Source: Ascidia mentula
Taxonomy: Eukaryota > Chordata > Ascidiacea > Phlebobranchia > Ascidiidae
Assembly: GCA_947561715.1 (NCBI GenBank)
Contig: OX387200.1
Span: 1,490,501-1,554,500 of the forward strand
Direction of reading: 5' to 3'
DNA length: 64,000 nt
The position numbers were made by a program, and so were the translations under genes. Of this stretch, positions 1 through 64,000 are shown in pieces; the stretch's first letter is position 1, and each line of letters begins with the position of its first letter. The notes below the pieces were generated by a model. The model worked only from the letters and a program-made list of their open reading frames with translations, was not told where the DNA came from and searched no databases.

Positions 1-3000
1 CAATTTTCATGGGAATATAAGGTATTGCATTGTAGCAGTAGTGCCTTGCTTCTTTTTAAAAACATTGGTTTCAAGTAAACATTTTTTACATAGATTTGTT
101 TTACCTATGATACAGCATAAGTCAAAATCCTACCATTTTCAGTGCATCTAGCCTGCCCACCTACAGTTACTTTATTTATGGTACTAAGGTGCAATTTGAA
201 AAGTATGGTTTGTTGTATTTAGAAATGTTAATATTTGATTTTTACTTATTTTCGGAATATTCCCCAATAATGCGACACATTCTTTAAATTTATTGTTGCT
301 GTTACTTGTAAATTTTACCAATTCAATGTGTGTTTATTAGCATGAAACAGATTTTTTTACACACAGCAATGTAATCTTAAAATATTTTGGTCTCCCATCA
401 GCTGTTGGCTAATTAATGTCAGATTATAACAAACGAAAATATAAAATGGAAGATTTTGGGCATCTAAAACATATTAATTATAAAACGTTACTCATTTCTT
501 GCAGGGATATTTTTTATGTGTTTCAGTTGTACCAACACATCAGGAGTTACAAACGTAGTTTTCACCTTTTTTAATGTGCTGTCCAATTATTCCACTGCCA
601 CTTGGAGTATTGGAATAAATTCATTGATTAAGACGGCTGATTTTTCAGTGCAAGGTAAAAATACAAAAGTCTAATGTTAATAACAATATCGAATTTTACT
701 TTACGTATTTACAACAAGAAACTTGCTTCAGTTGTTGATATTTTCTTTAAACTACCTTTGAATGAATGTCTTTATCCTGGTAACACAATTTTCATTGTAA
801 CACAACCATTATTGAATTACATTTAAAACAGTATATATATTATTGGGGATAGTGTTTTACGCTTTGAAATTATTTGAACAGTGGTTACTGAAATGACTTG
901 CATTTACTTTCTGCTGGACCTAAGTGCAACCATTAAACTTTATAGTTTTTTTCGAGGATTTTTAAGAGAAAAATATAAAATTTGTAGAACAAACTTGATT
1001 AGTCATTTATTTACAAAACTAGCTAAGCAATAAGAACCACCTTAGGCTGTTTTAGGTACTTAAATTAAACATTATATTAGGCTTAACATTTTTTATGTGT
1101 TTAGATTGTCCGAATGACACTTTACCTTCCAGACCATTTATCGAAGCACTCAAACTTAATTATAAGTCACCAGGTCAGTTCAAATGTCCAGCAGGTCAAG
1201 AGTTGTTTTACTGTAACTCAACTCCTGGTATTGTAAATACAACTTGTAAAAATGATGCAACATGGTTTGGAGCTAATGGATTAGAATGTTGGTCAGGTAA
1301 ACTTGCTAAATTTAGTTTAGCTAAATACAAAAATAAAGTTTGTGCTAGAAAACATTTACAGAAATAGAAACATTTTATTATTATGGTGATGAACTGCAGA
1401 TGTCCAATGCACTAAATTAGTTATGTGAAATTGTTAGATAATTATATAAAGTTTTTTTTGACAAAAATTATTGTACTATTGTTGTTAAAAATACTTCATA
1501 AAAACTCTTACTTCAAATAAAGTGTGTTGCTAGTGGTAAATATATTGGTATAATTTTGTTGCCAATGGTGAGTGTTTGTAAATCAATAGTAGATGAACAT
1601 GTTAATGATTGCAAACGATCACAGATTTTATGTAAAATATTGTCTCGGCCGCTATATATTTTTACTAGATCCAACACCACAGCTTTCTGGAAACTTTACT
1701 GGGATAGAAAAAACTGTGGTGGTAATAAAGTGTTGTGTCACATCACATGTGTTTCCGCCTGTTACAAGCTACTCCATCTATATTGGAAATGTTGTTTATA
1801 TACAACAGGTTTGTTAGTTAATTACCGGGAAAAAACTATTACCATTGCTAATACCATAAATGTACTATAAAAATTACTCTGTTCTTGGCCAATAAATGAC
1901 AAAACACAATCAGTAGCACTGGTGAATTTTCTGTGTAAAATGTACCCCTAAACAGCATGTGGAAGGTCAACAAAGTCTTTTGATAAATAGTGATTTGCTT
2001 GCAGCTAAAAAGGTAAGTATATGTGGTTATGCTACTGAATTTATAATATGATACATGGCAGTGACAAATCTTTTACAATTTAGATCCATGTAAGTTTATA
2101 TTTGCAGGATTCGCAAGACTTCAGTTTTCTACTGAAAAGAGAAATGAACAATCAAATGGTTCATTGTCAGGTCACCTCAAACTACACAAAGTTGAAAAAT
2201 ATTTCAGGAAATTCTTCTGACCATCAACTTATAGTACACTGTAAGTTTTGTTATCTTAGTATTGCACAGGTTATTTGTTTTTTAGAATTGTCAATACAAA
2301 ATCCAGTTCCATTTATTGTTGCTTTTTTTTACCAAAATGTTGAACAACCAGGGGGGCAAATGCCACCAGGGGGATGGCTAAACCTCTAAGGTCCATTGTG
2401 TAGGCCTTGGGAAGTTCCCACCACCGAAACTTATTTTCATTGAAATACCAATATACGTCCTTTAGTAAAACAAAATGTTTTCCTTATCCCTGTTTCACAA
2501 GAGATCCTGACTAAGTGACCACATCACACAACAAAAAAAAATGGCATATTTGAAAAACCCTAACCTGGCCAAGTGCTTTTGTTTTGAGTGAACTTGAGTT
2601 CCATAAATATTTTTGTGATGTGATCAGTCAGTCAGGAACTCTTGTGAAAAACGGATATGCCTTTAACAATTAATGTTTATTCTGATTTTTCATGTCGGTC
2701 AAAGTGGACCGTAAAGTGTGGTTTTATATACTTAAAAGCTGAATTGAACATAAATTAGTGTCTTTGTTAAAAAATACAAATTTTACGTTTGATGTGTATT
2801 GATGTTAATGCCAGTATAAGTTACCAAGTTCTATGTATGCACAAAAAAAGTCATAATGATTGAGAGCTGCAGACAGGTTGTACATGCACTGTTTCAACCT
2901 GTAAGGTCTCATCAGTGCAGATGTTGACTGTGGCACTGTACTAGCTTTTACACTAGTAGGCACACTGATTTCCACTTTGTGGTGACTTTCGGCCAACGTC

Positions 3001-6000
3001 GATCCATTGGTTACCCTATACTGAGTACCGAACAAAAGAGACGAACCACTGTGGGGCGCACTATGGCCAAATGAAACTGTTTGGTAACCGAAGTGCTAAA
3101 AGCTGAAACCCAATTCAATATATCTGCATAAAAGTCATAATAATTAGGAGCTGCAGACAGGGTGTACACGCACCGTTTCAACAATAATAATTGAAAGCTA
3201 ACACAGTGTCACAGTCAACAACTGCACTGATGAGAACCTCACACGTTGAAACAGTGCATGTATACACCCTGTCTGCAGCTTTCAATTAAAAAGTTCTCTC
3301 ATGCAAAAATGAAGTTTAAATTCCAACTTTCAAATTTCAATTAAATGCATTTTGAGATGAAGGGTTACTAGCACATATTTTACAGAATTTTGTTGATTGT
3401 TTTTTGTTTGTTGTATTCAGATCCACCATCAATTCCCAACATTACTATACAGGGGTTATTTCAACAAACTGAAAACCAATATATTATTCTGCAAAACACC
3501 AGTATAAGCTTAAATTGCTCTGTGGATTCAAACCCCCAATCTCAATGTGTTTGGTCATATAATAACTTGAATGAAAGAAACAATTCATGCAACATAAGCA
3601 GATCATTTAGTAATTCAACAAATGCAACTTGTCAAGCCAATAATGGTATTGGTAATTCTAGCAGAACAACCATTTCAATTGTTTCTGTTCCAACATTTAG
3701 TAAGTCAGTTTTGAAGTTTCTTTTTGAATTTAGACATTTCTTTCTTTAAAACATTATCCAGGACAACCAAAGATAACAGTTAATGGTGAAACAGTTAATA
3801 ACAATGCAACAAAGCTTCTCAATGAAAGCAATGCTGTTAAATTTAAATGTACTGTTGACTACCAAAGTTATCTTGGTACAATCTTTAAATGGACAAAAGA
3901 TGGGATTGATGTGAATAGTGATAGCATTTTATCCCAAAATGTTACACCAAATGACAGTGGTACATATGTATGCAAGTCTTCTGATGTGTTTGGGAGTTTC
4001 CAAACAAGGATTAACATTGATGTTCAGTGTAAGTTTGCACCATAGAAAGTTTGCATGTGGTGATAATTTGAAATAGTTTATCCATTCAAATCTGCATGTT
4101 TTCGTATTTCTCTTAAAAACAGAGTGTTTTTTGACATGTTGCGTAAATAATTTGTTTTGGAAACTATTGCAAAATGTAGCATTCAGTAGAAATCTTAACT
4201 GACCCAAATTGTTCTGTTTAAGATTAACTACACCTTTGTTTGTATTGATGGATAACTGTGCTAGTGTATGGTATCTGGTGAATGAATTAATTATCATTAA
4301 ATAATTTGTTTTGTGTTTTATGTCTTGCTTAACCTGTTAATACCTGGGTGTTTTGTGGAGGTTTCTATTGGTTGCATTAGTTCTATTCCAAACACAAGTT
4401 CATATTTTTTGCAACTTACTTCTGTATTCCAAGCATAACTGTAGACATTTCATCGTGGAACAGGTTTTTTTCAAAAATTACTGCAACTGTTTCTTTATCT
4501 TTTTTTCCCTTTAAAAACTTTTACATTTAAACCTTTACCTTGTGTAGCAATTACTTATCACAACACTCAGGACATAGCCACTAATAATGTATTAGGATGA
4601 TTTTTCTTCTGTTTTAGTGTTTATTTTCAGTTCTATAAATCTGAAAACATAAAATGACACCCGAGGATGTCACTGAACATGAATAATATTAAATTTTGCA
4701 AAAATTCCATTACTTGCTTTACAATCAGAAAAAGCTAGACACTCTTTTGGTACAAGTTGCAGATTTTTCCTCAAACCATTTTTTACTATATGTGCATTAA
4801 AGCCAATGAATGATTGACCACTTAGCACAATGCTAATGATAACAATTAGACAATCGATAAATCATGTGTCAATTAACATTTGTTTAAACTATTTGAAATG
4901 ATAATTGTATATTTTTTGTAATTGTGCTAATGTTATCTTTGCAAGTTAAATTATTTTCATAGACCAACCATACACTGACAGCAATTTGAACTGCCAACCA
5001 AACCAACCATGTGATATTACTGTGTATTCAAATCCTCCACCTTCTGCATCTGTTTTAATGTCACCAGGTTTGTAATGCTTGAATCTTGCCATATCTTAAC
5101 ATTTGATTTATAAATATACTTTTTTAGGAGGTGGAAATGAAACTCTTTCACTGTTGTTAAGTACTCCACCGGTTTACACATATCAAATTAAGGTAAATTA
5201 TGTTGTTAAACAGTAGGGAATCATTTATTTGTTCTTGCAAGTTGCATTAAAGGTAGTATAATATTAAATGAAGGTTAACCTTTAATCCCATAATGGTTGG
5301 TTTACTTTAGTTGAGGCCGGTTACCAATACTTTTTTGGTGTGAAATGTGCCCATAAGGTTGACTTAAATAATAGATGTTGGAAAATATGATAAAAATGCA
5401 ATTTAGAATATATTCCATTAAAAGAAACCATTTATCTCTATGGGCATTAGTCAGGTGTCAAAGCAAAATATTTTGCATCTGTGGCAATATTATTTTAAAT
5501 ATAGTTTTATTGCTGCATGTCAAAAGTAATGCAACAAACTATGCACAGTGAGTTCTTTGTAATCCTAGTTTGGTTATTTATCTGTAGAAGCCAGCAGGAA
5601 CCTACACATTGCATGTCACAAATGCAATTGGAACAAGCTTGATTACAATAATGATATCTGCAATCACTACCAGCCAACTGGGATTGATTATTGGAATATC
5701 TGTTGCCGCTGTTGTTGTTGTGATTCTTGCAATAATACTTGCAGTATTTTGTTTCAAAAGATCAACAGGTTAGTGTGAAATTGTAACATGTTTCATGATG
5801 TTAAATTATTAAACCCAAAGTTTTGTTTCATATTAATGTTGTTATCTAGCAGATAACAAAATGAAAGGAACACCTGCAAAGGTTTCACAGGAAGCACCTG
5901 TTTATTTAGACACACATGTGTATGAAAACACACCTCCACAACCTAATACACCCACATATGAAAACACACCTGAGTATCAGAATGTGGCAACTTATCAAAC

Positions 6001-9950: not shown

Positions 9951-10012
9951 CCTCCCCCCCAAATCTTACACTTGGTGACCCCGACGTGATCCAAGTGTAA
10001 GATTTGAGGGGG
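9951..10012 (+). mobile_element. LTR-element fossil: possible LTR end, primer-site-like and LTR start junction
   Basis: CCAAATCTTACA is followed by CTTGGTGACCCCGACGTGAT and then TGTAAGATTTG. The flanks are inverted repeats, as LTR ends (TG...CA) often are, and the middle resembles a Ty3/Gypsy-type primer-binding site. If so, this is a small broken fossil, and 9994 to about 10330 could be LTR-derived. The same structure is at 29624-29687, so it predates the unit duplication. Confidence 0.3.
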
Positions 10013-11053: not shown

Positions 11054-11391
11054 TAAGGTTCACAGGCTTCGCAGCCAAGGCATTGCAGCCAAGCTGGATC
11101 AGCCACTTTTCCCGACAAGTCGGAGCGAGATCTGAAAAATCAAGCTCCCGCTGAGGTTTGAACTCACGACCCTGGGCTAACCAGGCCCAACGCTCTACCA
11201 ACTGAGCTACAGGAGCTCACTGGTTTCACGGGGTATATTGTGGCCAAGGTACACTGGTGCGCAAGCGCACAACTTGTCAGGCGACCTTCACAACGTAGAG
11301 GATCTCCACCACCGTAATCAGACAACGCAGAAGTAATACCACGCTTTCGCATGCCTTGATGCTTATGCGAAAGCATGGCATTACTTCTGCG
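11054..11391 (-). mobile_element. tRNA-derived composite SINE, copy 1
   Basis: The insertion is flanked by the 13-base target duplication TCATTTTTGAGTG (11041-11053 and 11392-11404). Units 2 and 3 show the empty site (around 30717 and 44158). On the minus strand, 11216-11144 folds as a 73-nt tRNA-like cloverleaf with a 7-bp acceptor stem, an A box (TAGCTCAGTTGG) and a B box (GAGTTCAAACC). The anticodon arm is irregular, so it is not a working tRNA. The insertion ends in a foldback: 27-base arms 11326-11352 and 11365-11391 match at 25 positions. Ciona SINEs of composite type are known, but I cannot assign this one to a named family. Confidence 0.75.
11144..11216 (-). other. tRNA-like region inside SINE copy 1 (not a functional tRNA)
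   Basis: The acceptor stem (GCTCCTG with CGGGAGC), D arm and T arm are recognisable. The anticodon arm has an extra base pair, and the T stem has one mismatch. The loop would read GGT. It lies inside a SINE with target duplications, so I take it as an internal Pol III promoter. Confidence 0.6.
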
Positions 11392-15239: not shown

Positions 15240-15431
15240 GTCTCTGAAATACCATTATAGGCATCGTAGGCATTGAGCCCAGGCATCGTAGGCATTGTAC
15301 GCATGGAGTCTAGGCATCGTAGGTATTGTAGGCATTGAGTCTAGGCATTGTACGCATAGAGTCTAGGCATAGTAGGCATTGTGCGCATAGATTTGAGTAG
15401 AGTCTAGGCATTGTTGGCATTGAGTGTAGGC

Positions 15432-15529
15432 CAGGGGCGCACAGCCGTTTTATTAATGCCGGCCGCATCGCACAAACTTAATTTACCAACGGCCGCATGA
15501 AGCTGTACGGCCGCAGGTTGTACACCCTG
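15432..15529. mobile_element. Tiny hAT-type MITE inside the minisatellite, copy 1
   Basis: A 98-bp element with imperfect terminal inverted repeats, CAGGGGCGCACAGCC and, reversed, CAGGGTGTACAACC. The flanks GTGTAGGC and GTCTAGGC form an 8-bp target duplication with one mismatch, as expected of hAT elements. It has no coding capacity. Confidence 0.6.
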
Positions 15530-15622
15530 GTCTAGGCATTGTACGCATAGAATCTAGGCATTGTAGGCATTGTGCGCATAGATTTAAGTAGAGTCTAGGC
15601 ATTGTTGGCATTGAGTGTAGGC

Positions 15623-15720
15623 CAGGGGCGCACAGCCCTTTTATTAATGCCGACCGCATCGCACAGACTTAATTTACCAACGGCCGCATGAAGCTGTACG
15701 GCCGCAGGTTGTACACCCTG
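15623..15720. mobile_element. Tiny hAT-type MITE inside the minisatellite, copy 2
   Basis: Near-identical to 15432-15529, exactly 191 bases downstream, with the same flanking minisatellite sequence. It therefore arose by tandem duplication of the array rather than by a second insertion. Confidence 0.6.
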
Positions 15721-15876
15721 GTCTAGGCATTGTACGCATAGAATCTAGGCATTGTAGGTATAGAATCTAGGCATTGTAGGCATGGTAGGCATCGCAGGCA
15801 TTCAGTCTAGGCATTGTAGGTGTCGCAGGCACTGTGTGTATTCAGTCTACGCATCGACTCAATGCAGAAATGGCAA

Positions 15877-19100: not shown

Positions 19101-22100
19101 ACTGTAAATAATGGACCAAATATTGCAGCTGATAAATATCAGTTTAATGGACATGGACAGTTCCTATGTCCAAATGGACAGGAGTTGTTTTACAGCAACT
19201 CAACTCCTGCTATCAGGGATACAATTTGTCAAAATGATGCAACATGGTTAGGAGGTGATGGGTTGGAATGTTGGTCAGGTAACTGTTACAATTTGTTTTA
19301 ATCCTCTTATCGATATCAGATAATATCCAATATGTGTTAAATCTTACGTGTGTTAAATCTTACCCATTACTTGCAGGTAGTATCAAATCAGAAATGATAA
19401 TTTTTACCACAGACCAATAATGTGCTGCTTGCAGTAAGTTAAATGAAGGCACAATTTGTAATATTGTGACAGAATGTTTGCACTAGAATGCACATGCTGA
19501 TGATAAAGACAATCACAACTTTAAAGATTAAAGTTTTGTGTGCAATAAAGGAACATGTTTGTGTTTCAATAATGCAGAATTGTTCACAAACAACCTCTGA
19601 AATGTTCGCTTCTTGATAAGTTAGCTGTGAATGTGACACCTTGTCTACAGCCCTCATTGATAATTATGGCTCTCGCACATATAATATGAAACTTCATGTA
19701 ACAATTTTGCATGTACTTTTGCAGCACTTTAGAAGTATCGATATCACAGTACTTCTTATGAAAAATATTAGGTGTTGTTATCGGGTGAAAAACAACAGTA
19801 TGGGACAACCTTAAGTGCTATGTGTCATATTTTAATCAAGAGCTACTAATGCCCATACTTATATGACTTATTTGAAAGCACATGTGTAACTCAATATTCC
19901 CCAACAAAAGCAGGTGTTTTCATCTAGATCCTCAGCCTTACTTGACTGGAAATTTTTCTAGCAATGAAGGAACAACAACTAATATATTCTGCAACACATC
20001 ACCATCTGCTTACCCTCCAGTAAATAATGTTTCCTTTTATATTGGAAAAACACTGACACAACAGGTAGGCCCTTGCATAAATTTTGTTGAAAGCATGATA
20101 AAATGAGAATTGTGGACAACCCAAATAAGGATACATGTCAAAATATTTTATACCTGGGTTCCACAAATATTGGACTGTGAGTCGTTAGTAACTGGCCTGT
20201 ACAGAAAAAACAAATTCTTGGTCTTAATTTAAGGATGTCATGCACTTCATGCATGCACCATCGAAAGCCTTGGCACGCCGAATCCAGTCACCCACTTGCA
20301 TTGTTATCACAATGTTTAGCAAAACTGTTGCCTTTAGTATACGCTTTCAGTAATTTATTCACAATACACCAAAAACTGTGAACATATTTTCTCTTTACTT
20401 GTACTAACTTGTTTTTCACATCTAATTGGTAATATTTTTCAATCCCCCTTTTTGCATGGTTTTACCTGGAAGTACTGCAAAACTATGGTCAGTTGTAATA
20501 AAAGGCATGGAAGTCAGTTATGAGATAATTTTGTAGATGTGTCATTCTCTTAACATGGGCGTGCCAAATTGTTCTGTGTTATTCAACCCTCCCTGTGATA
20601 TGAAATTATTCAAGTAAACATGCCTTGGTGCATTTACACTAATGGTATATGTCACGACAAATGATAAGTGATGTAGGTCATGCACAATTAACGCTAAATT
20701 TCATGGACATTTGTTATACATTATTCAACAGTTCAACAACTTGTTTTCTGCAACATATAAAGGCCAAAATTTTTTTTGTTGGTGTTATTTTTATTTCTGA
20801 ATTGCATTACATGACAAATTTAAAATTTGCAACATTGCAAGTTAAGAAAAAATAGACGAGTAAACATAAAATAATCCTATGATAGGCCAAGTGGAGCCAA
20901 ATCTTTACTTCATTTTTGGTAAGCAAAGTTATCTGATAGTCACACCAACAGCACTGATGAGACCTTTTGGGTCAAAACAGTGGCCATCTGTCTGCAACTT
21001 ACACATAAAATAATCAACTAGGTTGTGCATGTAAATTTTTACTGATTTGTACTGAATATCTTTGCCAAAGTTTAGGTAAGTAGTTGACAGTATATGTGAT
21101 ACAAACAGTTGTTTTTGATCATCACCGTTTGCGCGGCCAAGAAACAAATCAACTGTGGAGATGAACACTTAGTATTCATTCCTGCATAGCAGAAAAATAA
21201 TCACACTTAAAACAATGTGCAAATTTTCAGAAGAGGGGGGGGGGGGGGGGGGTTATGATGCACGTGAACACACTTGACCACTGATGAGTTATATTGCTAT
21301 TGGTCCAAACATTAGTGATGCTTTTTTTTGTTTTACAAGGGAAGACAACAGACATATATTGTAACTCTCCAGCGACAAATGAATGGGAAAGAGGTGACTT
21401 GCAAAGCAAACACCAAGTACACAATTCTCAATACTAGTTTGGGAATATCAACACCAAAGACATTAAATGTCAAATGTAAGTAACAAATTGTACAATACAA
21501 ATATAATGAGCTAATACACTGCACATGTTCTTTTTTTATTAATTTTAGTGGTGTGTCATTTTGTGATTTTATTGCTGCTAAAAGTATTCAACTCAACTAA
21601 ATGTGACATAAAATAACACATGTGCCATTTTATACAGTTTTTGTGGACAAAATAACCTGGCATTTGTGACATCATACACACACAGTAATAAAGATGGTAG
21701 CCAGTAATTATGATATTGTGAACAATTCACGTAACTGATCTTAAAAAGTTGTATTGAATAAAAATGTCTCTGAAACCTGGGTTGATGAATGAATGAATGA
21801 ATGAATGAATGAATGGTTGAGGCACGAAAATCCACCCAAATCTGGATTACAAAAATAAATCTGAATAGAAAACTACTTACTTTCAATATCTTTCAAATTT
21901 TGAATGCAGAAGTGGTGATGTTCCAAGTTGTGCGCTGCCTATCAAATAATTTGTCAACTTGTTTTGTTAAAGTTGTGTCATATTGTGGGGATTGAAATGT
22001 TAACATTTGTTTTTAGTTAAGTGATTTAAAATCGTACATCTACTGTCTGGGTTTGCTATCTACTTGTGCCGCTTAATGCTTAAAAAATGACATATCTGCG

Positions 22101-25100
22101 AGCTTACAAACAAGATGGAACCAATTCCATGTGAACCAATGTATTTTGTTAAAAAATTGGAACCGGCCTGGTAATCCAGGTATTTAAATGTTTGATTTGT
22201 GAAAGGCTGAAAGTTGTTACATATGTCTTTCAACACCATCAACCTGACAATTTTTGCTTAATTACAGAGTTTTATTTTATTTAATTGACCAGTTGGTGTA
22301 TGTGAAGAGGCAGAAAACTGCAAAATATTTTTTTCAATGTGAAAACATATGATGATCTTGGATTCACATTGAAAAACTACTTGAGGCCAATTTCTTTAGG
22401 TTGCATTATTTGTGCATTGTAAATTTGTCCTTCTTTAAGCAACTTGAAGTACTTTGCTAAGGAGTTCCTTGGCTTAGTTGTTGCTTACATATGTAGTTTG
22501 TCTAGATTTGTACCCTTAATTATTGATGTGAAAATACTACATGTATCAGGAATCTATTGTCTGTTAACTTCTCTTGTCCCAATAAAAACACATTAGTTGT
22601 GTAAATTTATGTTAATTCTGATTTATTATGTATGTCAAAATGGACCATGAAACTGTAGTTTTATTTGACAATCTTAAATTATAAAGTTTGATTATGTCTG
22701 ACAAACATAGGCGCCTAGTCCGGGGGGTAACGTTCGAAGAAAAAAGACCTAAAAACAATGTGTTTCTTACGCGACGCACACAAAACATGTTGACCTAGTT
22801 TCGTTTGCATAGCTGCCATCAGTTGTTGCAACGTCAGTCTCGCAGTATACTATGCCAACAGGTACAGGTTTATTGGTTGTGTCGTAGACCGATCTCTTGT
22901 GTTTATCGTTAACGCCGCCCTTTTGGCTAATACTCCCCATGCATTAAAATTCAAACACAGTTTTTCGATCCTTGATGATGTCATAGTAACAAATTATGAC
23001 GTCATAACATAGCCGCTCCCCTGGAAAAATGGAAACTAGGCGCCTATGCTGACAAATGACATATGTCATAAAAACAATGGTGACTTTTAATGTTTTATCG
23101 ATTTAAATGTCAGTGTAAGTTGCAATACAAATTAACAAGTTCTTTCATGCAATAATGTTCTGTAAGACAAACTTAAAAACTAAAGTTTAATTGTGTGTGA
23201 AAAATGTGTTGAATTGAACGTGAATTTGTTTGTTTGTTAAAAAAAAAATTGATACAAATTAACAAGTTCTCTCGTGCAAAAGAATTGTTTAAATTCTCAA
23301 CTTCTAAATAGCAATTAAATGCGTTTTAAGATGAATGGGTACCACTACATATTTCACAGAATTTTGTTTGTTGATTGTTTTTTGTTTGTTGTATTCAGAT
23401 CCACCTTCAATTCCCAACATCACTGTACAGGGGTTACAAACTGAAAACCAATATATTATTTTGCAAAACACCAGTATAAGCTTAATTTGCTCTGTGGATT
23501 CAAATCCCCAATCTCAATGTGTTTGGTCATATGATAACTTGAATGAAAGCAATGATTCATGCAACGTCAGCAGAAAATTTATTAGTTCAACAAATGCAAC
23601 TTGTAAAGCCACTAATGGCATTGGTAATTCTACAAGTCAAACCATTTTAATTGTTTCAGTTCCCACAATGAGTGAGTTAGTTTTGAAGTTTGTTTTTGAA
23701 TTTATACATTTTTTCTTTTAAAACATTCTTATTCAGGACAACCAAAGATAACAGTTAATGGTGAAACAGTTGATAACAATACAATAAAGCTTCTCAATGA
23801 AAGCAATGCTGTTAAATTTAAATGCACTGTTGATTACCAAAGTTATCTTGGTTCAATCTTTAAATGGACAAAAGATGGGATTGATGTTGAGATAGATGTT
23901 AATAATGATAGCATTTTGCCAAAAAATGTTACACCAAATGACACTGGTACATATGTATGCAAGTCTTCTGATGAGTTTGGAAGTTTTCAAACAAGGGTTA
24001 ACATTGATGTTCAGTGTAAGTTTGCACCATAGAAAGTTTGCATGTGGTGTTAATTTGAAATAGTTTGTCCATTCAAATCTGCATGTTTCCATATTTCTCT
24101 TAAAAACAGAGTGTTGTTTGACATGTTGCGTAAATAATTTGTTTTGGAAGCTATTGCAAAATGTAGAATTTGGTAGAAATCTTAACCGACCCAAATTTGT
24201 TCTGTTTAAGATTAACTACACCTTTGAGTGTATTAATAGAATACCTTAACTGTGCTAGTGAATGAATTAATTATCATTAAATTTGTTTTGTGTTTTATGT
24301 CTTGCTTAACCTGTTAATAAGTGGGTGTTTTGTGACGGTTTCTATTGGTTGCATTAGTTCTATTCCAAAAACATGTTCATATTTTTTACAACCTACTCCT
24401 GTAGTCCAAGCATAACTGTAGACATTTCATCATAGAACAGGTCTTTTGTAAAATTACTGCAACTGTTTCTTTTATCTTTATATCCATTATTTAAACCTTT
24501 ACACCTCATGTAGAAATTACCTGGTTTTTAAGATTGGTTATATAATGTAATTACAAGTATTAGAAATGTTTCCAACTATATGTGTAGCATGTGGAAAGTT
24601 TCATTGCAACTAATAATCTATTAGGAGGATTTTTCTTCTGCTTGTGATTATTTTCAGTTTCATAAATCTGAAAACGTGAAATAACACACGAGGACGTCAT
24701 GTAACATGTATAATATTAAAATTTGCAAAAATACCATTACTTGCTTTATAATCAGAAAAAGCTAGAAACTCTATTGGTACAAGTTGCAGATTTTTCTCCA
24801 TTAAACAATTTTTGCTATATGTGCATTAAAGCCAATGAATGATTGAGCACTTAGCACAATGCTAATGATTACAATTAGACATTTTATGAATCATGTGTGA
24901 ATTTACATTTGGTTTACACTATTTCAAATGATAATTGTATATATTTTGTTATTGTGCTAATGTTGGCTTTACAAGTTAATTAATTTTATAGACCAACCAT
25001 ACACTGTCGGCAATGTGAACTGCCAACCAAACCAACCATGTGATATTACTGTGTATTCAAATCCTCCACCTAATGCATCTGTTTTAATGTCACCAGGTTT

Positions 25101-34203: not shown

Positions 34204-37200
34204 ATGACTGTGGTTCAAACAACGAGAAAGCCATTTGGTAAAACACTGCTGATGCTCTTTGCTTGCTACCAATATACGGCAGGTAAGCCTTAAAATTGTT
34301 GTAAAAGTTATATGTGTAGAAATGTCCGAATCCCATGCAATACATAGTGTTAAGTGTACAGCAAGTCTGCACCACCAGGCGTTTTTTTTTCATCTTCCCT
34401 TGACTGACTTTTACAGAGAAAAGGAAACCGAAATTTATAATGTAATAAAATAATCTGATTTATGGAGCGTAAATCACAATATGTAGCCTTTGTTTCATAA
34501 AGAAAATTCTCTGGTTAATCATAAATGCTTATTCGCATAATCCCATAGCGCCCTCTATAACAGGTCTGTACACCTGTCATGCTCGTTTCCAAACTGCAGC
34601 CTGCAGGCATAGGTGTTTCAACTGGTTTCTGTAGTTGTGCGAGATGTGTAGATAGTTTGTGCTGTGTTATTAATAAGATGATACACAGAAGACTATGCTG
34701 TCTGATTATAGTGGTAGAGATCCCCCACATATATGTGAAGATTGCCTGGCAAGTTGTGCACTTACGCACCAGCGTACCTTGACCACAATATACCCCATGA
34801 AAGTGCTGAGCTCATGTAGCTCAGTTGGTCAGTCCAGGGTCGTAAGTTCCCACTTGTCAAAGAAAGTGGCTGATCCAGCTGGGTGCAAAGCCTGTAATCC
34901 TAATGCTTTTTAACATTGACAAATTTCCAGTATTTGACAAATATTTTAAGAAAACCTGGTGCCTATGTTATCACAACCAGCAACTGCACTTTGAGTTTTC
35001 TATGTGACTAATTTCAACACAAAACACCCTCAAACATGTTTGTGCATGCTTAATGGGTCAAGAGAAGTGTGAAATCAATTCAACTTTGATCTGCCAAATT
35101 ATTTTTTACTATTTTTAACTTTGGGCTTGTCAGTAGTCGCCCTAGACCTGTTACAGAAAGTATGGTTATACCTTTTCGCCTTCACATACAATGGCGGTTA
35201 CATTTATCCGATAAAACCATAAGGGTTATCAAGTCAGGCATCTGTTGATATTGAAATCAAGAAATTTAATAAGCATGTGGCAAAAACTCACACTTGGCCT
35301 ATGGCTGGACAAGTACTACAGCACACCACAGAAACAATTGTTCCTATCACTGTCTGTACCTTGAAATAAGCATATTTTACTGATTTAAACAATATTTGTT
35401 TATTATGTGTAATTGTATATGGTACATAGCATATGAGTTCGTCGACAAAGGCCAACAAAGAATGTGATTTACCAGATCTTACAACCGAGTTTTGTTGTTT
35501 TTAAAAAAAGTAGTGCATAGTTTTGGGGATCATTAGGTTTAAAGGCTTCACAGCCCAGGCATTGCAGCCTAGCTGGATCAGCCACTTTTTCCTGACAAGT
35601 CGGAGAGAGATGTTTGAGTCTAAGTGAATAATCAAGCTCCTAGTAAGGTTTGAACTCCTAAACCTGGGCTAACCAGGCCTAACGCTCTACCGAATGAGCT
35701 TCTGCAGGTCAGTGGTTGCACGTATATAACTTGTCAGGCAACCTTTACAAATATGTAGGGGATCCCTGCTACTGTAAACAGATAATGCAGTGATGTTTCA
35801 TGCAATCATATTTTAGTTTTTGAGAATTACAAGAATATATCCAAAAAATCTCATATATTGATTCATTTACAGTGTAGTGACTGAAAACATTTAGCATATT
35901 TTGATTGGCACTTAGCCTTCAAAAAACCCTGGTTTAACTCATTCTGACACTCACTGTGAACTTAAATTTTCTCCAGAACGTCTGCTTTTTTTTTTTTAAC
36001 TTGCCTAAAAATTAACTTGGCTGCAGACTGTTTCGTACGTTTTTGGTCTGTGGTTGGTAAACAGCCTGTGCCTGATGCTGATGCAGTTGCAAACTCCCAA
36101 AGCACAATACTAAACACTTGTATTGTTACAGGTATAACCATCACTTTTCCATTTCCACCCAACAACACAGATGTGGTTGTTAACGGCAATATCCCAGTTG
36201 TAAATGGACAAGTTGAGAATTATTCTGGGTATTCTAGTTGTGTCTGGAACAATATTGCAGGGCTGTCTTTCTTTGCTGGTTCCATGTGCAGAAACACTGA
36301 CAGCATAACTTGCACTATGACTGACAAACTCATTAATACCACTTACACTCTCACTGACAAACCTATTTCCAATATGAATTTTATGATAAGTTGTTCAGGT
36401 AACTCTGTATCTCTACATTCACAACTTCTACTAATAAATGTCAAAGGTAAATATCTGCTAAACATTTTTAAAATATGATTTCAGAATATGTGTAAACTCG
36501 TTGTAACAAAGGTTTTTAATATTCTGTACTATATTGTAACATATCTTACCTTATGTAACACAAAAAGTGCTGTAATGAAATGGTATGAACAAAATGCTAT
36601 TTATTGCTGAACATTTCCCTTCTGATAAATTTTATTGTATCAACATTTCTCAATGATGAAATGGGAATCAAGCAATGTGGACAAGGTTGTGGCACATAAA
36701 CAAAGAAAAAACACTACAATAGAAGGGAAGAAGTGAAAAGACTATAAGGAAGGGCGAACGCACCTGAACTATACAATTATCAGCAAAAACACTAATGGTT
36801 TTTGGAGTGCGCAATGTTTAACGGCAAAAAATCCTGGTGTCGGTACACTGGGGGAAATAAAGCATATGCATTAATGATCAATGATTCCAAAAACATCCTC
36901 TTGTACCTTTCGAACTCAGTTTCAAAATCATCGTTCTGGTAAGTCCACTGTATGTCTGTTTGGGTCGCATGCTGAGAATCAGCAGTTTTCTCTTTCAACC
37001 TCGTTCTCAGCGCGATGCCAGTTTCCCCAATGTACACGCCGATGCACCCACCAACACAGATAAGATAAAATTTGCCAGAAGAGCAGAATTCAGCAATAAA
37101 ATGCTAGTATTGCTACAATATGTAGCATTTTCTTAAACTAATAAAATATACGTTATTACAGAATGTCCACGTACACTTGCTACCTTGCAACCAGTTGTAA

Positions 37201-50700: not shown

Positions 50701-53700
50701 TTAGAATGTTGGTCAGGTAAACTTGCTAAATTTAGTGTAGCTAAATTCAAAAATAAAGTTTGTGCTAAATAGAAACATTTCATGATTATGGTGATGAACT
50801 GCAGATGTCCAATGCACTAAATTAGTTATGGCATGGAAATTGTTAGATAATTATATAAAGTTTTTTTTGACAAAAATTCTTGTACTATTGTTGTAAAAAT
50901 ACTTCATAAAAACTTTTACTTCAAAAAAAGCGTGTTGCTAGTGGTAATTATATTGGTATTATTTCACTGCCAATGGTGAGTGTTTGTAAATCAATAGTAG
51001 ATGAACATGTCGATGATTGCAAACGATCACAGATTTTATGAAAAATATTGTCTCGGCCATAAATTCTGATGTAATACGATGCGCTATATATTTTTACTAG
51101 ATCCAACACCACAGCTTTCTGGAAACTTTACTGGGGTAGAAAAAACTGTGGTTGTGATAAAGTGTTGTGTTGCATCACATGTGTTTCCGCCTGTTACAAG
51201 CTACTCCATCTATATTGGAAATGTTGTTTATATACAACAGGTTTGTTAGTTAATTACCTGGAAAAAACTATTACCATTGCTAATACCATAAATGTACTAT
51301 AAAAATTACTCTGTCCTTGGCCAATAAATGACAAAACACAATCAGTAGCTCTGGTGAATTTTCTGTGTAAAATGTACCCCTAAACAGCATGTGGAAGGTC
51401 AACAAAGTCTTTTGATAAATAGTGATTTGCTTGCAGCTAAAAAGGTAAGTATATGTGGTTATGCTACTGAATTTATAATATGATACATGGCAGTGACAAA
51501 TCTTTTACAATTTAGATCCATGTAAGTTTATATTTGCAGGATTCGCAAAACTTCAGTTTTCAACTGAAAAGAGAAATGAACAATCAAATGGTTCATTGTC
51601 AGGTCACCTCAAACTACACAAAGTTGAAAAATATTTCAGGAAATTCTTCTGACCATCAACTTATGGTATACTGTAAGTTTTGTTATCTTAATATTGCACA
51701 GGTTATTTGTTTTTTAGAATCGTCAAAACAAAATCCAGTTCCATTTTTTGTTGCTGTTTTGACCAAAATCATGAATAACCAGGGGGCAAGTGCCACCAGG
51801 GGGATGGCTAAACCTCTAAGGTCCACTTTGAAGGTCTTGGGCAGTTCCCACCACCAAAACTTGTTTTCATTGAAATACCAATATACGTCCTTTAGTAAAA
51901 CAAAATGTTTCCCTTATCTCTCTTTCACAAGAGATCCTGACTAAGTGACCACATCACAAAACAAAAAAATGGCATATTTGAAATACCCAAACCTGGCCAA
52001 GTGCTTTTGTTTTTAGTGAACTTGAGTTCCATAAATATTTTTGTGATATGATCAGTCAGTCAGGAACTCTTGTGAAAAAGGGATATGCCTTTAACAATTA
52101 ATGTTTATTCTGATTTTTTGTGTCTGTCAAAGTGGGCCGTAAAGTGTTGTTTTTTTATACTAAAAAGCTGTATTGAACATAAATTAGTGTCTTTGCAAAA
52201 GCACTGATGAGACCTCACATGTTGAAACAGTGCATGTACACACCCTGTCTGCAGCTCTCAATTAACAAGTACTCTTATGCAAAAATGAAGTTTAAATTCC
52301 AAACTTTCAAATTTCAATTAAATGCATTTTAAGATGAAGGGTTACTAACACATATTTTACAGAATTTTGTTGATTGCTTTTTGTTTGTTTCATTCAGATC
52401 CACCTTCAATTCCCAACATTACTATACAGGGGTTATTTCAGCAAACTGAAAACCAATATATTATTCTGCAAAACACCAGTATAGGCTTAAATTGCTCTGT
52501 GGATTCAAACCCCCAATCTCAATGTGTTTGGTTATATGATAACTTGAATGAATGCAACAATTCGTGCAACATAAGCAGAAAATTTAGTAATTCAACAAAT
52601 GCAACTTGTCAAGCCAATAATGGCATTGGTAATTCTACCAGTACAATCATTTCAATTGTTTCTGTTCCAACAATGAGTAAGTTAGTTTTAAAGTTTGTTT
52701 TTGTATTTAGACATATTTTTCTTCAAAACATACTTATTCAGGACACCCAAAAATAACAGTTAATGGTGAAACAGTTGTTAACAATGCAACAAAGCTTCTC
52801 AATGAAAGCAATGCTGTTAAATTTAAATGCACTGTTGATTACCAAAGTTATCTTGGTACAATCTTAAAATTTACAAAAGATGGGATTGATGTTGAGATAG
52901 ATGTTAATAATGATAGCATTTTGTCAAAAAATGTTACACCAAATGACACTGGTACATATGTATGCAAGTCTTCTGATATGTTTGGGAGTTTTCAAACAAA
53001 GATTAACATTGATGTTCAGTGTAAGTTTGCACTATAGAAAGTTTGCGTGTGGTGATAATTTGAAATAGTTTATCCATTCAAATCTGCATGTTTTCGTATT
53101 TCTCTTAAAAACAGAGTGTTTTTTGACACGTTGCGTAAATAATTTGTTTTGGAAACTATTGAAAAATGTAGCATTCAGTAGAAATCTTAACTGACCCAAA
53201 TTGTTGTGTATAAGATTTACTACGCCTTTGTTTGTATTGATGGATTACCTTAATTGTGCTATGTATGATATCTGGTGAATGATTGGCTTATCATTAATTT
53301 TGTTTTGTGTTTTATGTCTTGCTTAACCTGTTACTAACTGGGTGTTTTGTGAAGGTTTCTGTTGGTTGCATTAGTTCTATTCCAAACACAAGTTCATATT
53401 TTTTGCAACCTATTCTGTATTCCAAGCATAACATTAGACATTTCATCGTGGAACAAAAACTTTTACATTTAAACCTTTACCTTGTGTAGCAATTACTTTT
53501 CACAACACTCAGGGAATAGCAACTAATAATGTATTAGGATGATTTTTCTTCTGTTTTAGTGTTTATTTTCAGTTCTATAAATCTGAAAACATGAAATGAC
53601 ACCCAAGGATGTCACCTAACATGTATAATATTAAAATTTGCAAAAATACCATTACATGTTTTACAATCAGAAAAAGCTAGACACTCTTTTGGTACAAATT

Positions 53701-62990: not shown

Positions 62991-63308
62991 GCATATATTA
63001 CTAGGAGCACAATAGTAGCGTGCACAAAATGTAGCGTTTTTTAAGGGTTAGACATCACGCATGGACCAGTTGTTACTTTGGGGTTAAACAGCAAATCAGA
63101 GTATGTGAACTACAAAGACTTAATAAAAGTAAGTTCTTTTTAATTTTACAACAAGTAGCAGTGTAAATTTGGTGAGATGCCAATATACTTACACAATAAG
63201 CGCTAAAACTGACAAAGCAGGAAGCACAACCAAAGGTTGACAAAACACCTCCACAAAATAAATGTGCCAACAGCTGAAATACCTTTTACAAAACATTTAA
63301 CAAAGAAT

Positions 63309-63400
63309 TATGAATCTGGCGTTCTCCTGGTGAAAAACAACAAATATCACCTTTTGTTTAAAAAAGATTGTATTTTCACCGGAAGAATGTCAGATTCATA
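63309..63400. other. 92-nt hairpin with 28-bp imperfect stem
   Basis: Arms 63309-63336 and 63373-63400 match at 24 of 28 positions. Three of the four differences give G-U pairs in a + strand RNA, leaving one true mismatch. The loop is 36 nt. It could be a small MITE or a microRNA-like precursor. No target duplication was identified. Confidence 0.35.
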
Positions 63401-64000
63401 ATACATTATTTATGATACCTGGTGGTCACAACCTATTTTCAGTTTTCAACATTTAACAAAACCATTTAAAAGAGTTTACAAGCAAAATATTATGTACACT
63501 TATAAGACAGAAGTCTTGTACAATAAAATATCAATGGAAACCGTCCAGCCAAACATTATATTCTGGATACAAAGAGACATTTTAAAAACAATGCACCAAA
63601 GTTCCTGTGTTTTCATGGTGTCGACAAGCCAAACACATGACTGTAATCCATGAAAGGAAGCTACCAGTTATAAAGGGCAAAATTCAACAACAAGGAAGTG
63701 GGTGTTTGTAGAACTAAAGACGTCAAAACAAAATGATGTTTAACCAAATTTTGCAATTGTGAAATGTTGTGTGTGACTGGAAATTTAAACACACCAAATT
63801 GGAAGTGTATCTTGTAAGGTTACCTCAAATAGAGGAAAACTCAAGGAGGAGATTTTTGGGCAAAACATGATTTAGCTGCAATAACCTCCTGGATTATACA
63901 CATATTAGTAGGTAATGAAAAAAACTTATTTATTTGCAATCGCAAGGCCCAAACATAACCTTGCTTTTAAACAATGTAAAGCCAAAAACAACAAACAGCA

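What the first reader, a model, noticed from the sequence alone, without database searches (positions are those of the whole stretch)
2867..3278. Tandem hammerhead ribozymes bounding a 284-bp repeat in an intron of gene A
On the minus strand one complete type I hammerhead (2867-2920) and one truncated copy (3151-3185) lie 284 bases apart in the same orientation, and a third motif (3222-3278) lies inverted beside them. This is the layout expected of a dimeric retrozyme or a Penelope-like terminal repeat, where the ribozyme cuts monomers. D keeps only the + strand copy.
Basis: partly seen in the sequence, partly recalled or inferred. Interest (0 to 1): 0.75.

Follow-up and report, generated by a model that had tools for sequence, protein, structure and literature searches.

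The report
Decayed two-armed hammerhead ribozyme retrotransposon
This is an old, broken copy of a small ribozyme-carrying jumping element (a retrozyme) in an intron, and relatives sampled across the genome carry the insertion marks of Penelope-type retrotransposons, which bears on the open question of what moves such elements in animals.

Summary
The motifs are real. Window 2833-3285 is one insertion of a non-coding hammerhead (HHR) element of ~290-bp units in an intron of an Ig-like gene: a minus-strand left arm (one 284-bp unit plus a truncated second) and a plus-strand right arm, ribozyme 3' ends outwards, with an aged 12-bp target-site duplication (TSD).

The genome has 2,426 matches to an intact-core HHR pattern (reversed control: 4). 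Of 67 non-redundant sampled insertions, the 25 two-armed ones are minus-then-plus. Outer ends cluster about 8-24 or 27-52 nt past the cleavage site; 19 of 22 readable two-armed copies have one of each. TSDs, mostly 12 bp, are clear in 13 of 22 (mismatched flanks: 2 of 462). Penelope-like elements (PLEs) in this genome show the same anatomy in 5 of 5 readable head-to-head pairs.

So this is an animal retrozyme with the PLE "tail" signature, which published in vitro work ties to two internal start sites of PLE reverse transcription. Cleavage, circular RNA and the enzyme were not tested, and Rfam scores stay below threshold.

The parts
2821..2832 (.). left copy of the target-site duplication, TTACCAAGTTCT
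   Evidence: 10 of 12 bases match the right copy; one base from TTAACAAGTTCT in paralogue B
2833..3182 (-). left arm: outer (long) end 39 nt past the cleavage point, one full 284-bp unit and part of a second
2867..2920 (-). complete type I hammerhead; predicted cut between 2872 and 2871; closing pair of stem II is G-U where 25 of 26 aligned copies have G-C
   Evidence: Rfam below gathering score
3151..3182 (-). truncated ribozyme of the second unit (GAAAC..GUC|UGCAG half only, no CUGAUGA)
3183..3193 (.). inner junction of the two arms, 11 nt assigned to neither arm
3194..3285 (+). right arm, 5' truncated; outer (short) end 12 nt past the cleavage point
3221..3278 (+). hammerhead of the right arm with damaged stem II; predicted cut between 3273 and 3274
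3286..3297 (.). right copy of the target-site duplication, TTAAAAAGTTCT
52201..52261 (+). the same insertion in gene D, right arm only; right duplication copy TTAACAAGTACT at 52262-52273
20865..21015 (.). second retrozyme insertion (family RZ2): minus arm from about 20877 (long end), plus arm 20915-21003 (short end), 12-bp duplication CATAAAATAATC at 20865-20876 and 21004-21015
63292..63460 (.). fragment of a Penelope-like element with the same plan: minus arm 63305-63377 (short end), plus arm 63377-63447 (long end), 13-bp duplication AACATTTAACAAA at 63292-63304 and 63448-63460
   Evidence: about 91% identical to L078 over 74-77 nt

Best explanation
The feature is an old, degraded insertion of a small non-coding hammerhead retrozyme, put there by Penelope-type (PLE) machinery. 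Proposed steps: a multimeric retrozyme RNA is cut by its type I HHRs and joined into circles of about 290 nt (inferred, from published retrozymes). A PLE RT-endonuclease cuts both strands of the target about 12 bp apart (stagger shown by the duplications; enzyme inferred). Both target 3' ends prime reverse transcription at two fixed internal places just past the ribozyme cleavage site, about +8 to +24 and +27 to +52 (end positions shown). Each cDNA runs upstream, sometimes several times round the unit, and the two are joined head to head at a variable inner junction (anatomy shown, order of steps inferred). This copy was later duplicated with its host gene and decayed.
For: Family of 285-291-bp units with HHRs. 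25 of 25 non-redundant two-armed insertions, the window copy among them, are minus-then-plus; 9 against 0 among the first 100 listed HHR cores. Two-class outer ends, 19 of 22 with one short and one long. Duplications at score >= 9 in 13 of 22 two-armed copies against 2 of 462 mismatched pairs; 10 of the 13 are 12 long. Same plan in 5 of 5 readable PLE pairs, ends 31-42 nt apart, duplications with a 12-bp core; neighbouring opposite GIY-YIG matches are minus-then-plus 17 times and never the reverse. RVT_1 and GIY-YIG in both PLE frames tested. A PLE fragment and an RZ2 copy in the window itself show it. PMC11167929 (parts 1-3 of 4 read): a purified lizard PLE protein cuts and extends both strands, and reverse transcription starts at two adjacent internal sites that match the genomic 'tail'.
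Against: No RNA or cleavage data. Rfam hammerhead scores stay below gathering, and none was listed for the four PLE loci L077-L080. Minimum-energy folds favour a competing hairpin. No covariation in the stems. Nine of 22 two-armed and 28 of 40 one-armed copies show no clear duplication; the automatic scan also missed it in the window copy. 2 of 22 have two long ends and 1 an end outside both classes. Two mixed groups (L066, L067, overlapping pieces of one place) have a plus piece left of a minus arm. No PLE family was tied to the retrozymes by sequence. LINEs were not examined.
Confidence: 0.78

Rival explanations
1. Same PLE-type insertion, but the template is an uncut linear multimer transcribed from a genomic array, not a ribozyme-made circle; the HHR plays no part in copying.
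For: In PMC11167929 HHR mutants did not affect insertion in vitro. Start sites lie past the cleavage point, so the template must be continuous there, joined or uncut. The two full units of L016 differ at 22 positions.
Against: Units within L009 (11 full units, both arms), L015 and L041 are identical apart from one poly-T length change in L009; L010 units differ by 3 and L109 units by 0-4. This fits one small circle copied repeatedly, but a homogeneous source array is not excluded.
Confidence: 0.35
2. The retrozymes are moved by a LINE whose twin priming makes the head-to-head arms.
For: L1 twin priming gives inverted, truncated copies flanked by duplications (PMC2837659, abstract start in the listing).
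Against: Both outer ends fall in two fixed places, usually one of each, and PLE copies of the same genome share this and the 12-bp length; PMC11167929 calls the tail unique to PLEs. LINEs here were not examined.
Confidence: 0.08
3. A DNA transposon with inverted terminal repeats, or satellite DNA reshaped by recombination and inversion; the HHR is incidental.
For: The arms are inverted repeats; tandem arrays exist (L009, L109).
Against: Unit numbers per arm and inner junctions vary between loci, the two ends differ by about 30 nt in one fixed way, and 26 + 26 of 95 groups are one-armed. Recombination alone does not predict 12-bp duplications at the ends.
Confidence: 0.05

Closest known systems
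Metazoan non-LTR retrozymes (Cervera and de la Pena 2020, PMC7229834; parts 1-4 of 6 read)
   Same: Type I HHR in units of about 170-400 bp, from dimers to arrays, no coding capacity, duplications larger than 4 bp when present, co-existing with PLEs that carry minimal HHRs
   Different: In the parts read the elements are described as tandem repeats; head-to-head arms, two fixed outer ends and a 12-bp duplication are not described there ('inverted' and 'head-to-head' occur 0 times in that paper). This copy has only 1.26 units in its longer arm.
Penelope-like elements with GIY-YIG endonuclease (PMC3846280, passages; PMC11167929, parts 1-3 of 4)
   Same: Head-to-head inverted parts, optional ~31-bp tail on one end, short duplications, partial tandems, HHR motifs
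   Different: No RT-endonuclease frame in the retrozyme; rotifer duplications are 8-10 bp, here mostly 12; the HHR here has a full stem III region while PLE ones look minimal
Plant LTR retrozymes (as described in PMC7229834)
   Same: Non-autonomous HHR elements thought to spread through circular RNA
   Different: Type III HHRs in LTRs, circles of 600-800 nt, 4-bp duplications, likely moved by Gypsy elements
L1 twin-primed insertions (PMC2837659, listing only)
   Same: Inverted head-to-head structure with a duplication
   Different: By general knowledge one end is the RNA 3' end and the second priming site is not fixed; here both ends fall in two fixed internal places

Membership tests
Metazoan non-LTR retrozyme | type I hammerhead with intact core | tested here: met
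   Core and three stems present in the minus arm (98.2% of cells paired in 26 copies); 2,426 pattern matches against 4. Rfam gathering score not reached.
Metazoan non-LTR retrozyme | tandem units of about 170-400 bp | tested here: met
   291-bp (L009) and 285-bp (L109) arrays; the window copy itself has one full unit and a part
Metazoan non-LTR retrozyme | low GC (below 45% in the figure, below 50% in the text of PMC7229834) | tested here: inconclusive
   RZ1 unit 47.8%, RZ2 unit 47.4%, window element 42.8%
Metazoan non-LTR retrozyme | self-cleavage and circular RNA of unit length | not testable with these tools
   No RNA data; folds favour a competing hairpin
Metazoan non-LTR retrozyme | insertion with target-site duplication | tested here: met
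   13 of 22 two-armed copies against 2 of 462; window copy 10 of 12 bases by hand
Metazoan non-LTR retrozyme | unoccupied target with one copy of the duplicated sequence | tested here: inconclusive
   Paralogue B aligns on both sides without the element (left side better than 475 of 475 random pieces), but holds the 12-mer twice, at 23132 and 23259, in a stretch duplicated within B; the left side of C does not align
Penelope-like element | RT plus GIY-YIG open reading frame | tested here: not met
   The element is 453 bp and only 1 open frame of 150 aa or more lies in the window, at 36017-36478. So it is not a PLE.
Penelope-like element | insertion signature: head-to-head parts, ~30-nt tail on one end, short duplication | tested here: met
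   the signature is shared, which supports being moved by a PLE and not membership

The most novel reading that the evidence does not exclude
Animal retrozymes are to Penelope-like elements what SINEs are to LINEs. A PLE complex loads the ribozyme-made RNA circle on both cut ends of the target and copies it by rolling reverse transcription in both directions from two fixed start sites beside the ribozyme, so the HHR's role is to supply an endless template that makes the tandem arms.
Probability: 0.45. Interest if true: 0.82.

Novelty: new variant of a known kind. Interest (0 to 1): 0.62.

Why it matters
What moves animal retrozymes is open: PMC7229834 and PMC7761336 (passages) name PLEs only as likely candidates, from co-existence, tandem copies and shared HHRs. 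The insertion anatomy here is physical evidence for it and gives exact predictions (two start regions near +12 and +40, about 12-bp stagger, both strands primed) that an in vitro assay of the published kind can test. It also suggests that inverted hammerhead pairs in animal genomes can be insertion products and not chance. The window copy itself is an ordinary decayed member.

Tried and rejected
Rfam over the whole window and the short stretch: hammerhead absent in the first, weak in the second; the V_AS5 match (24.3 bits, gathering 96) overlaps the inverted repeat and is well below threshold. A first duplication scan used loose anchors that often hit unrelated TGCAG and is superseded. One search stopped with an error after two loci; one search repeats it. 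Minimum-energy folding does not give the HHR. Covariation is uninformative because the pairs hardly vary. A search for a partner PLE by sequence found none; one retrozyme piece lies next to a PLE in L088. That both arms come from one RNA molecule is not supported in general: the other arm is the closest relative in 7 of 16 loci. A stem enclosing the short start (window AGUCA/UGACU; RZ1 GCCA/UGGC) was seen by eye only; the alignment does not line it up in RZ2. Species was not identified; that the host is an animal is inferred from the Ig-like exon.

Rows dropped before counts: 95 insertion groups; 2 of mixed orientation set aside, 93 reduced to 67 by flank similarity. Of the 25 two-armed ones only 22 had both ends read; of 41 one-armed copies with an end read, 40 entered the duplication test. 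L028 and L029 share one inner junction and may be one event counted twice. L009-L046 were chosen from the best matches, L047-L076 and L097-L116 from the head of the list on contig C1, passing over some local duplicates, so the sample is not random over the genome. The automatic ends of the window copy (28 and 15; score 7, not a hit) were corrected by hand to 39 and 12; the counts were not changed.
Full report
What is there. Window 2833-3285 is one insertion in an intron just before an Ig-like exon (from 3421; Pfam Ig_3 21.0 bits, below its cut-off of 30). Its left arm lies on the minus strand: a complete hammerhead (2867-2920), a full 284-bp unit, and a second unit cut off inside its ribozyme. 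An 11-nt junction follows, then a short plus-strand arm with a third, damaged hammerhead. The arms are 88% identical as an inverted repeat, and both ribozyme 3' ends point outwards. A 12-bp duplication flanks the element: TTACCAAGTTCT at 2821-2832 and TTAAAAAGTTCT at 3286-3297, 10 of 12 matching. The outer ends lie 39 nt (left) and 12 nt (right) past the predicted cleavage points.

Age. The same insertion is in a locus about 225 kb away (L002/L024, 93% identical over 458 nt) and, without its left arm, in gene D (52201-52261), so it seems to predate these duplications. Paralogue B has no element at the corresponding place. Its left side aligns to A's left flank better than 475 of 475 random pieces, and it has TTAACAAGTTCT, one base from each copy of the duplication. 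B holds this 12-mer twice (23132 and 23259), so the empty site is supportive but not clean. The left flank of C does not align (40 of 500 random pieces score as well).

The family. The 461-bp query gave 193 matches from 1,851 first-look candidates, 40 of them scored, in the 195.8-Mb genome. CTGATGAGN{4,14}CGAAAC occurs 1,201 times forward and 1,225 reverse, against 2 and 2 for the pattern read backwards. Two sequence families were read: RZ1, 291 bp (L009), and RZ2, 285 bp (L109), 65% identical over 194 aligned columns. L009 has HHR cores for 8 minus and 5 plus units; its 11 full units are identical across both arms except one with two extra T. Over all arms, units within an arm differ by a median of 0 (41 pairs) and units of different loci by a median of 10.5% (495 pairs).

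Insertion anatomy. I segmented 88 genome loci plus the window copy, giving 95 insertion groups: 41 minus-then-plus, 26 plus only, 26 minus only and 2 mixed (plus-minus-plus; L066 and L067, overlapping pieces of one place). None is plain plus-then-minus. After merging copies with similar flanks 67 remain, 25 of them two-armed. Outer ends cluster at 8-24 and 27-52 nt past the cleavage site. Of 22 two-armed copies with both ends read, 19 have one short and one long end, 2 two long ends, 1 a short end with an end outside both classes, and none two short ends; of 41 one-armed copies, 21 end long, 15 short and 5 outside. Inner junctions vary from locus to locus, L028 and L029 excepted. Duplications score >= 9 in 13 of 22 two-armed copies against 2 of 462 mismatched flank pairs, and >= 12 in 10 of 22 against 1 of 462; 10 of the 13 are 12 long. 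Of 40 one-armed copies 12 score >= 9 (null 25 of 1,560), so most one-armed copies show no clear duplication.

The Penelope link. At least 121 GIY-YIG matches lie in the genome (150 of 382 candidates scored), some in open frames of 730-892 aa. The two frames tested carry RVT_1 and GIY-YIG. Neighbouring opposite matches within 7 kb are minus-then-plus 17 times and never the reverse. One array (L077) repeats a 2,870-bp unit in both orientations at 99.9-100% identity. Of six PLE pairs examined five could be read: all have one shorter and one longer end, 31-42 nt apart, and an exact repeat of 12-15 bp at the ends; L080 could not be read. HHR-like motifs (CTGANGA..GAAA) occur in 14 of the 16 further PLE 3' regions and in the L077, L078 and L080 regions. 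These regions belong to a few families, so they are not independent; their short stems I were matched by eye; and Rfam listed no hammerhead in L077-L080. Inside the window a PLE fragment (63292-63460) and an RZ2 copy (20865-21015) show the same plan.

Mechanism. [quoted passage not shown] PMC3846280 (passages) describes inverted pLTRs, an optional 31-bp tail, 8-10-bp duplications and a mostly head-to-head arrangement in rotifer PLEs. The retrozymes here carry this signature. Shown: anatomy, ends, duplications, orientation, unit identity. Inferred: that a PLE enzyme did it, that the template was a circle, and the order of steps. Since both start regions lie past the cleavage point, the template was continuous there, either a circle or an uncut multimer; the same paper found that HHR mutants did not affect insertion in vitro, which leaves the second possible.

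Results against. No cleavage or RNA data exist here. Rfam scores stay below gathering for this copy and for intact relatives, and some core-bearing loci gave no match. A competing hairpin wins in minimum-energy folds: -16.8 against -7.7 kcal/mol for this copy, -20.9 against -15.1 for RZ1, -17.0 against -15.6 for RZ2. Stem pairs are 98.2% formed in 26 copies with no change on both sides, so covariation gives no support. In only 7 of 16 comparable loci is a copy's other arm its closest relative (medians 0.948 within, 0.890 between), and the two units of L016 differ at 22 positions, so one circle per insertion is not general. No partner PLE family was found by sequence, and LINEs were not examined.

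Novelty. In the listings I saw no title or abstract start that describes head-to-head arms or the PLE tail in animal retrozymes; I did not read most of those papers. Most subscription papers and all bioRxiv preprints are not held, and two PLE papers asked for (PMC8557442, PMC4209133) were not available. Retrozymes as a class are known and the window copy is a broken member; the insertion signature is what adds to knowledge.

Noticed in passing
window 20865-21015: A second retrozyme (family RZ2) with a short minus arm, a plus arm and a 12-bp duplication; its core has GAAAC changed to AAAAC.
   Followed up: partly
window 63292-63460: A 143-bp fragment of a Penelope-like element (family of L078), itself head-to-head with a short and a long end and a 13-bp duplication.
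   Followed up: partly
L077 (G000:C67:6133000-6142000): A Penelope-like element in 2,870-bp tandem units in both orientations, arms 99.9-100% identical.
   Followed up: partly
L059-L065, L070, L071 (G000:C1, about 1.18-1.77 Mb): A run of local repeats tens of kb apart carries the same two-armed HHR insertion, apparently copied with its surroundings.
   Followed up: no
window 11142-11217, with similar stretches at 34699-34829 and 35535-35722: The tRNA-Thr(GGT) call has two related stretches in the window and may be part of a tRNA-derived SINE and not a tRNA gene.
   Followed up: no
window 11327-11390 and 9954-10012: Near-perfect palindromes that match microRNA models below gathering score on both strands; probably small inverted-repeat elements.
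   Followed up: no
window 15258-15866: Tandem repeats of TAGGCATTG-like units with a 191-bp higher period.
   Followed up: no
window 2867-2945 minus strand; L009, L109, L078, L091: By eye, a stem outside HHR stem I (AGUCA/UGACU in the window, GCCA/UGGC in RZ1) encloses the short start, and PLE ends have a similar stem (CCAG/CUGG) around theirs; a shared RNA mark for the enzyme is possible but untested.
   Followed up: no
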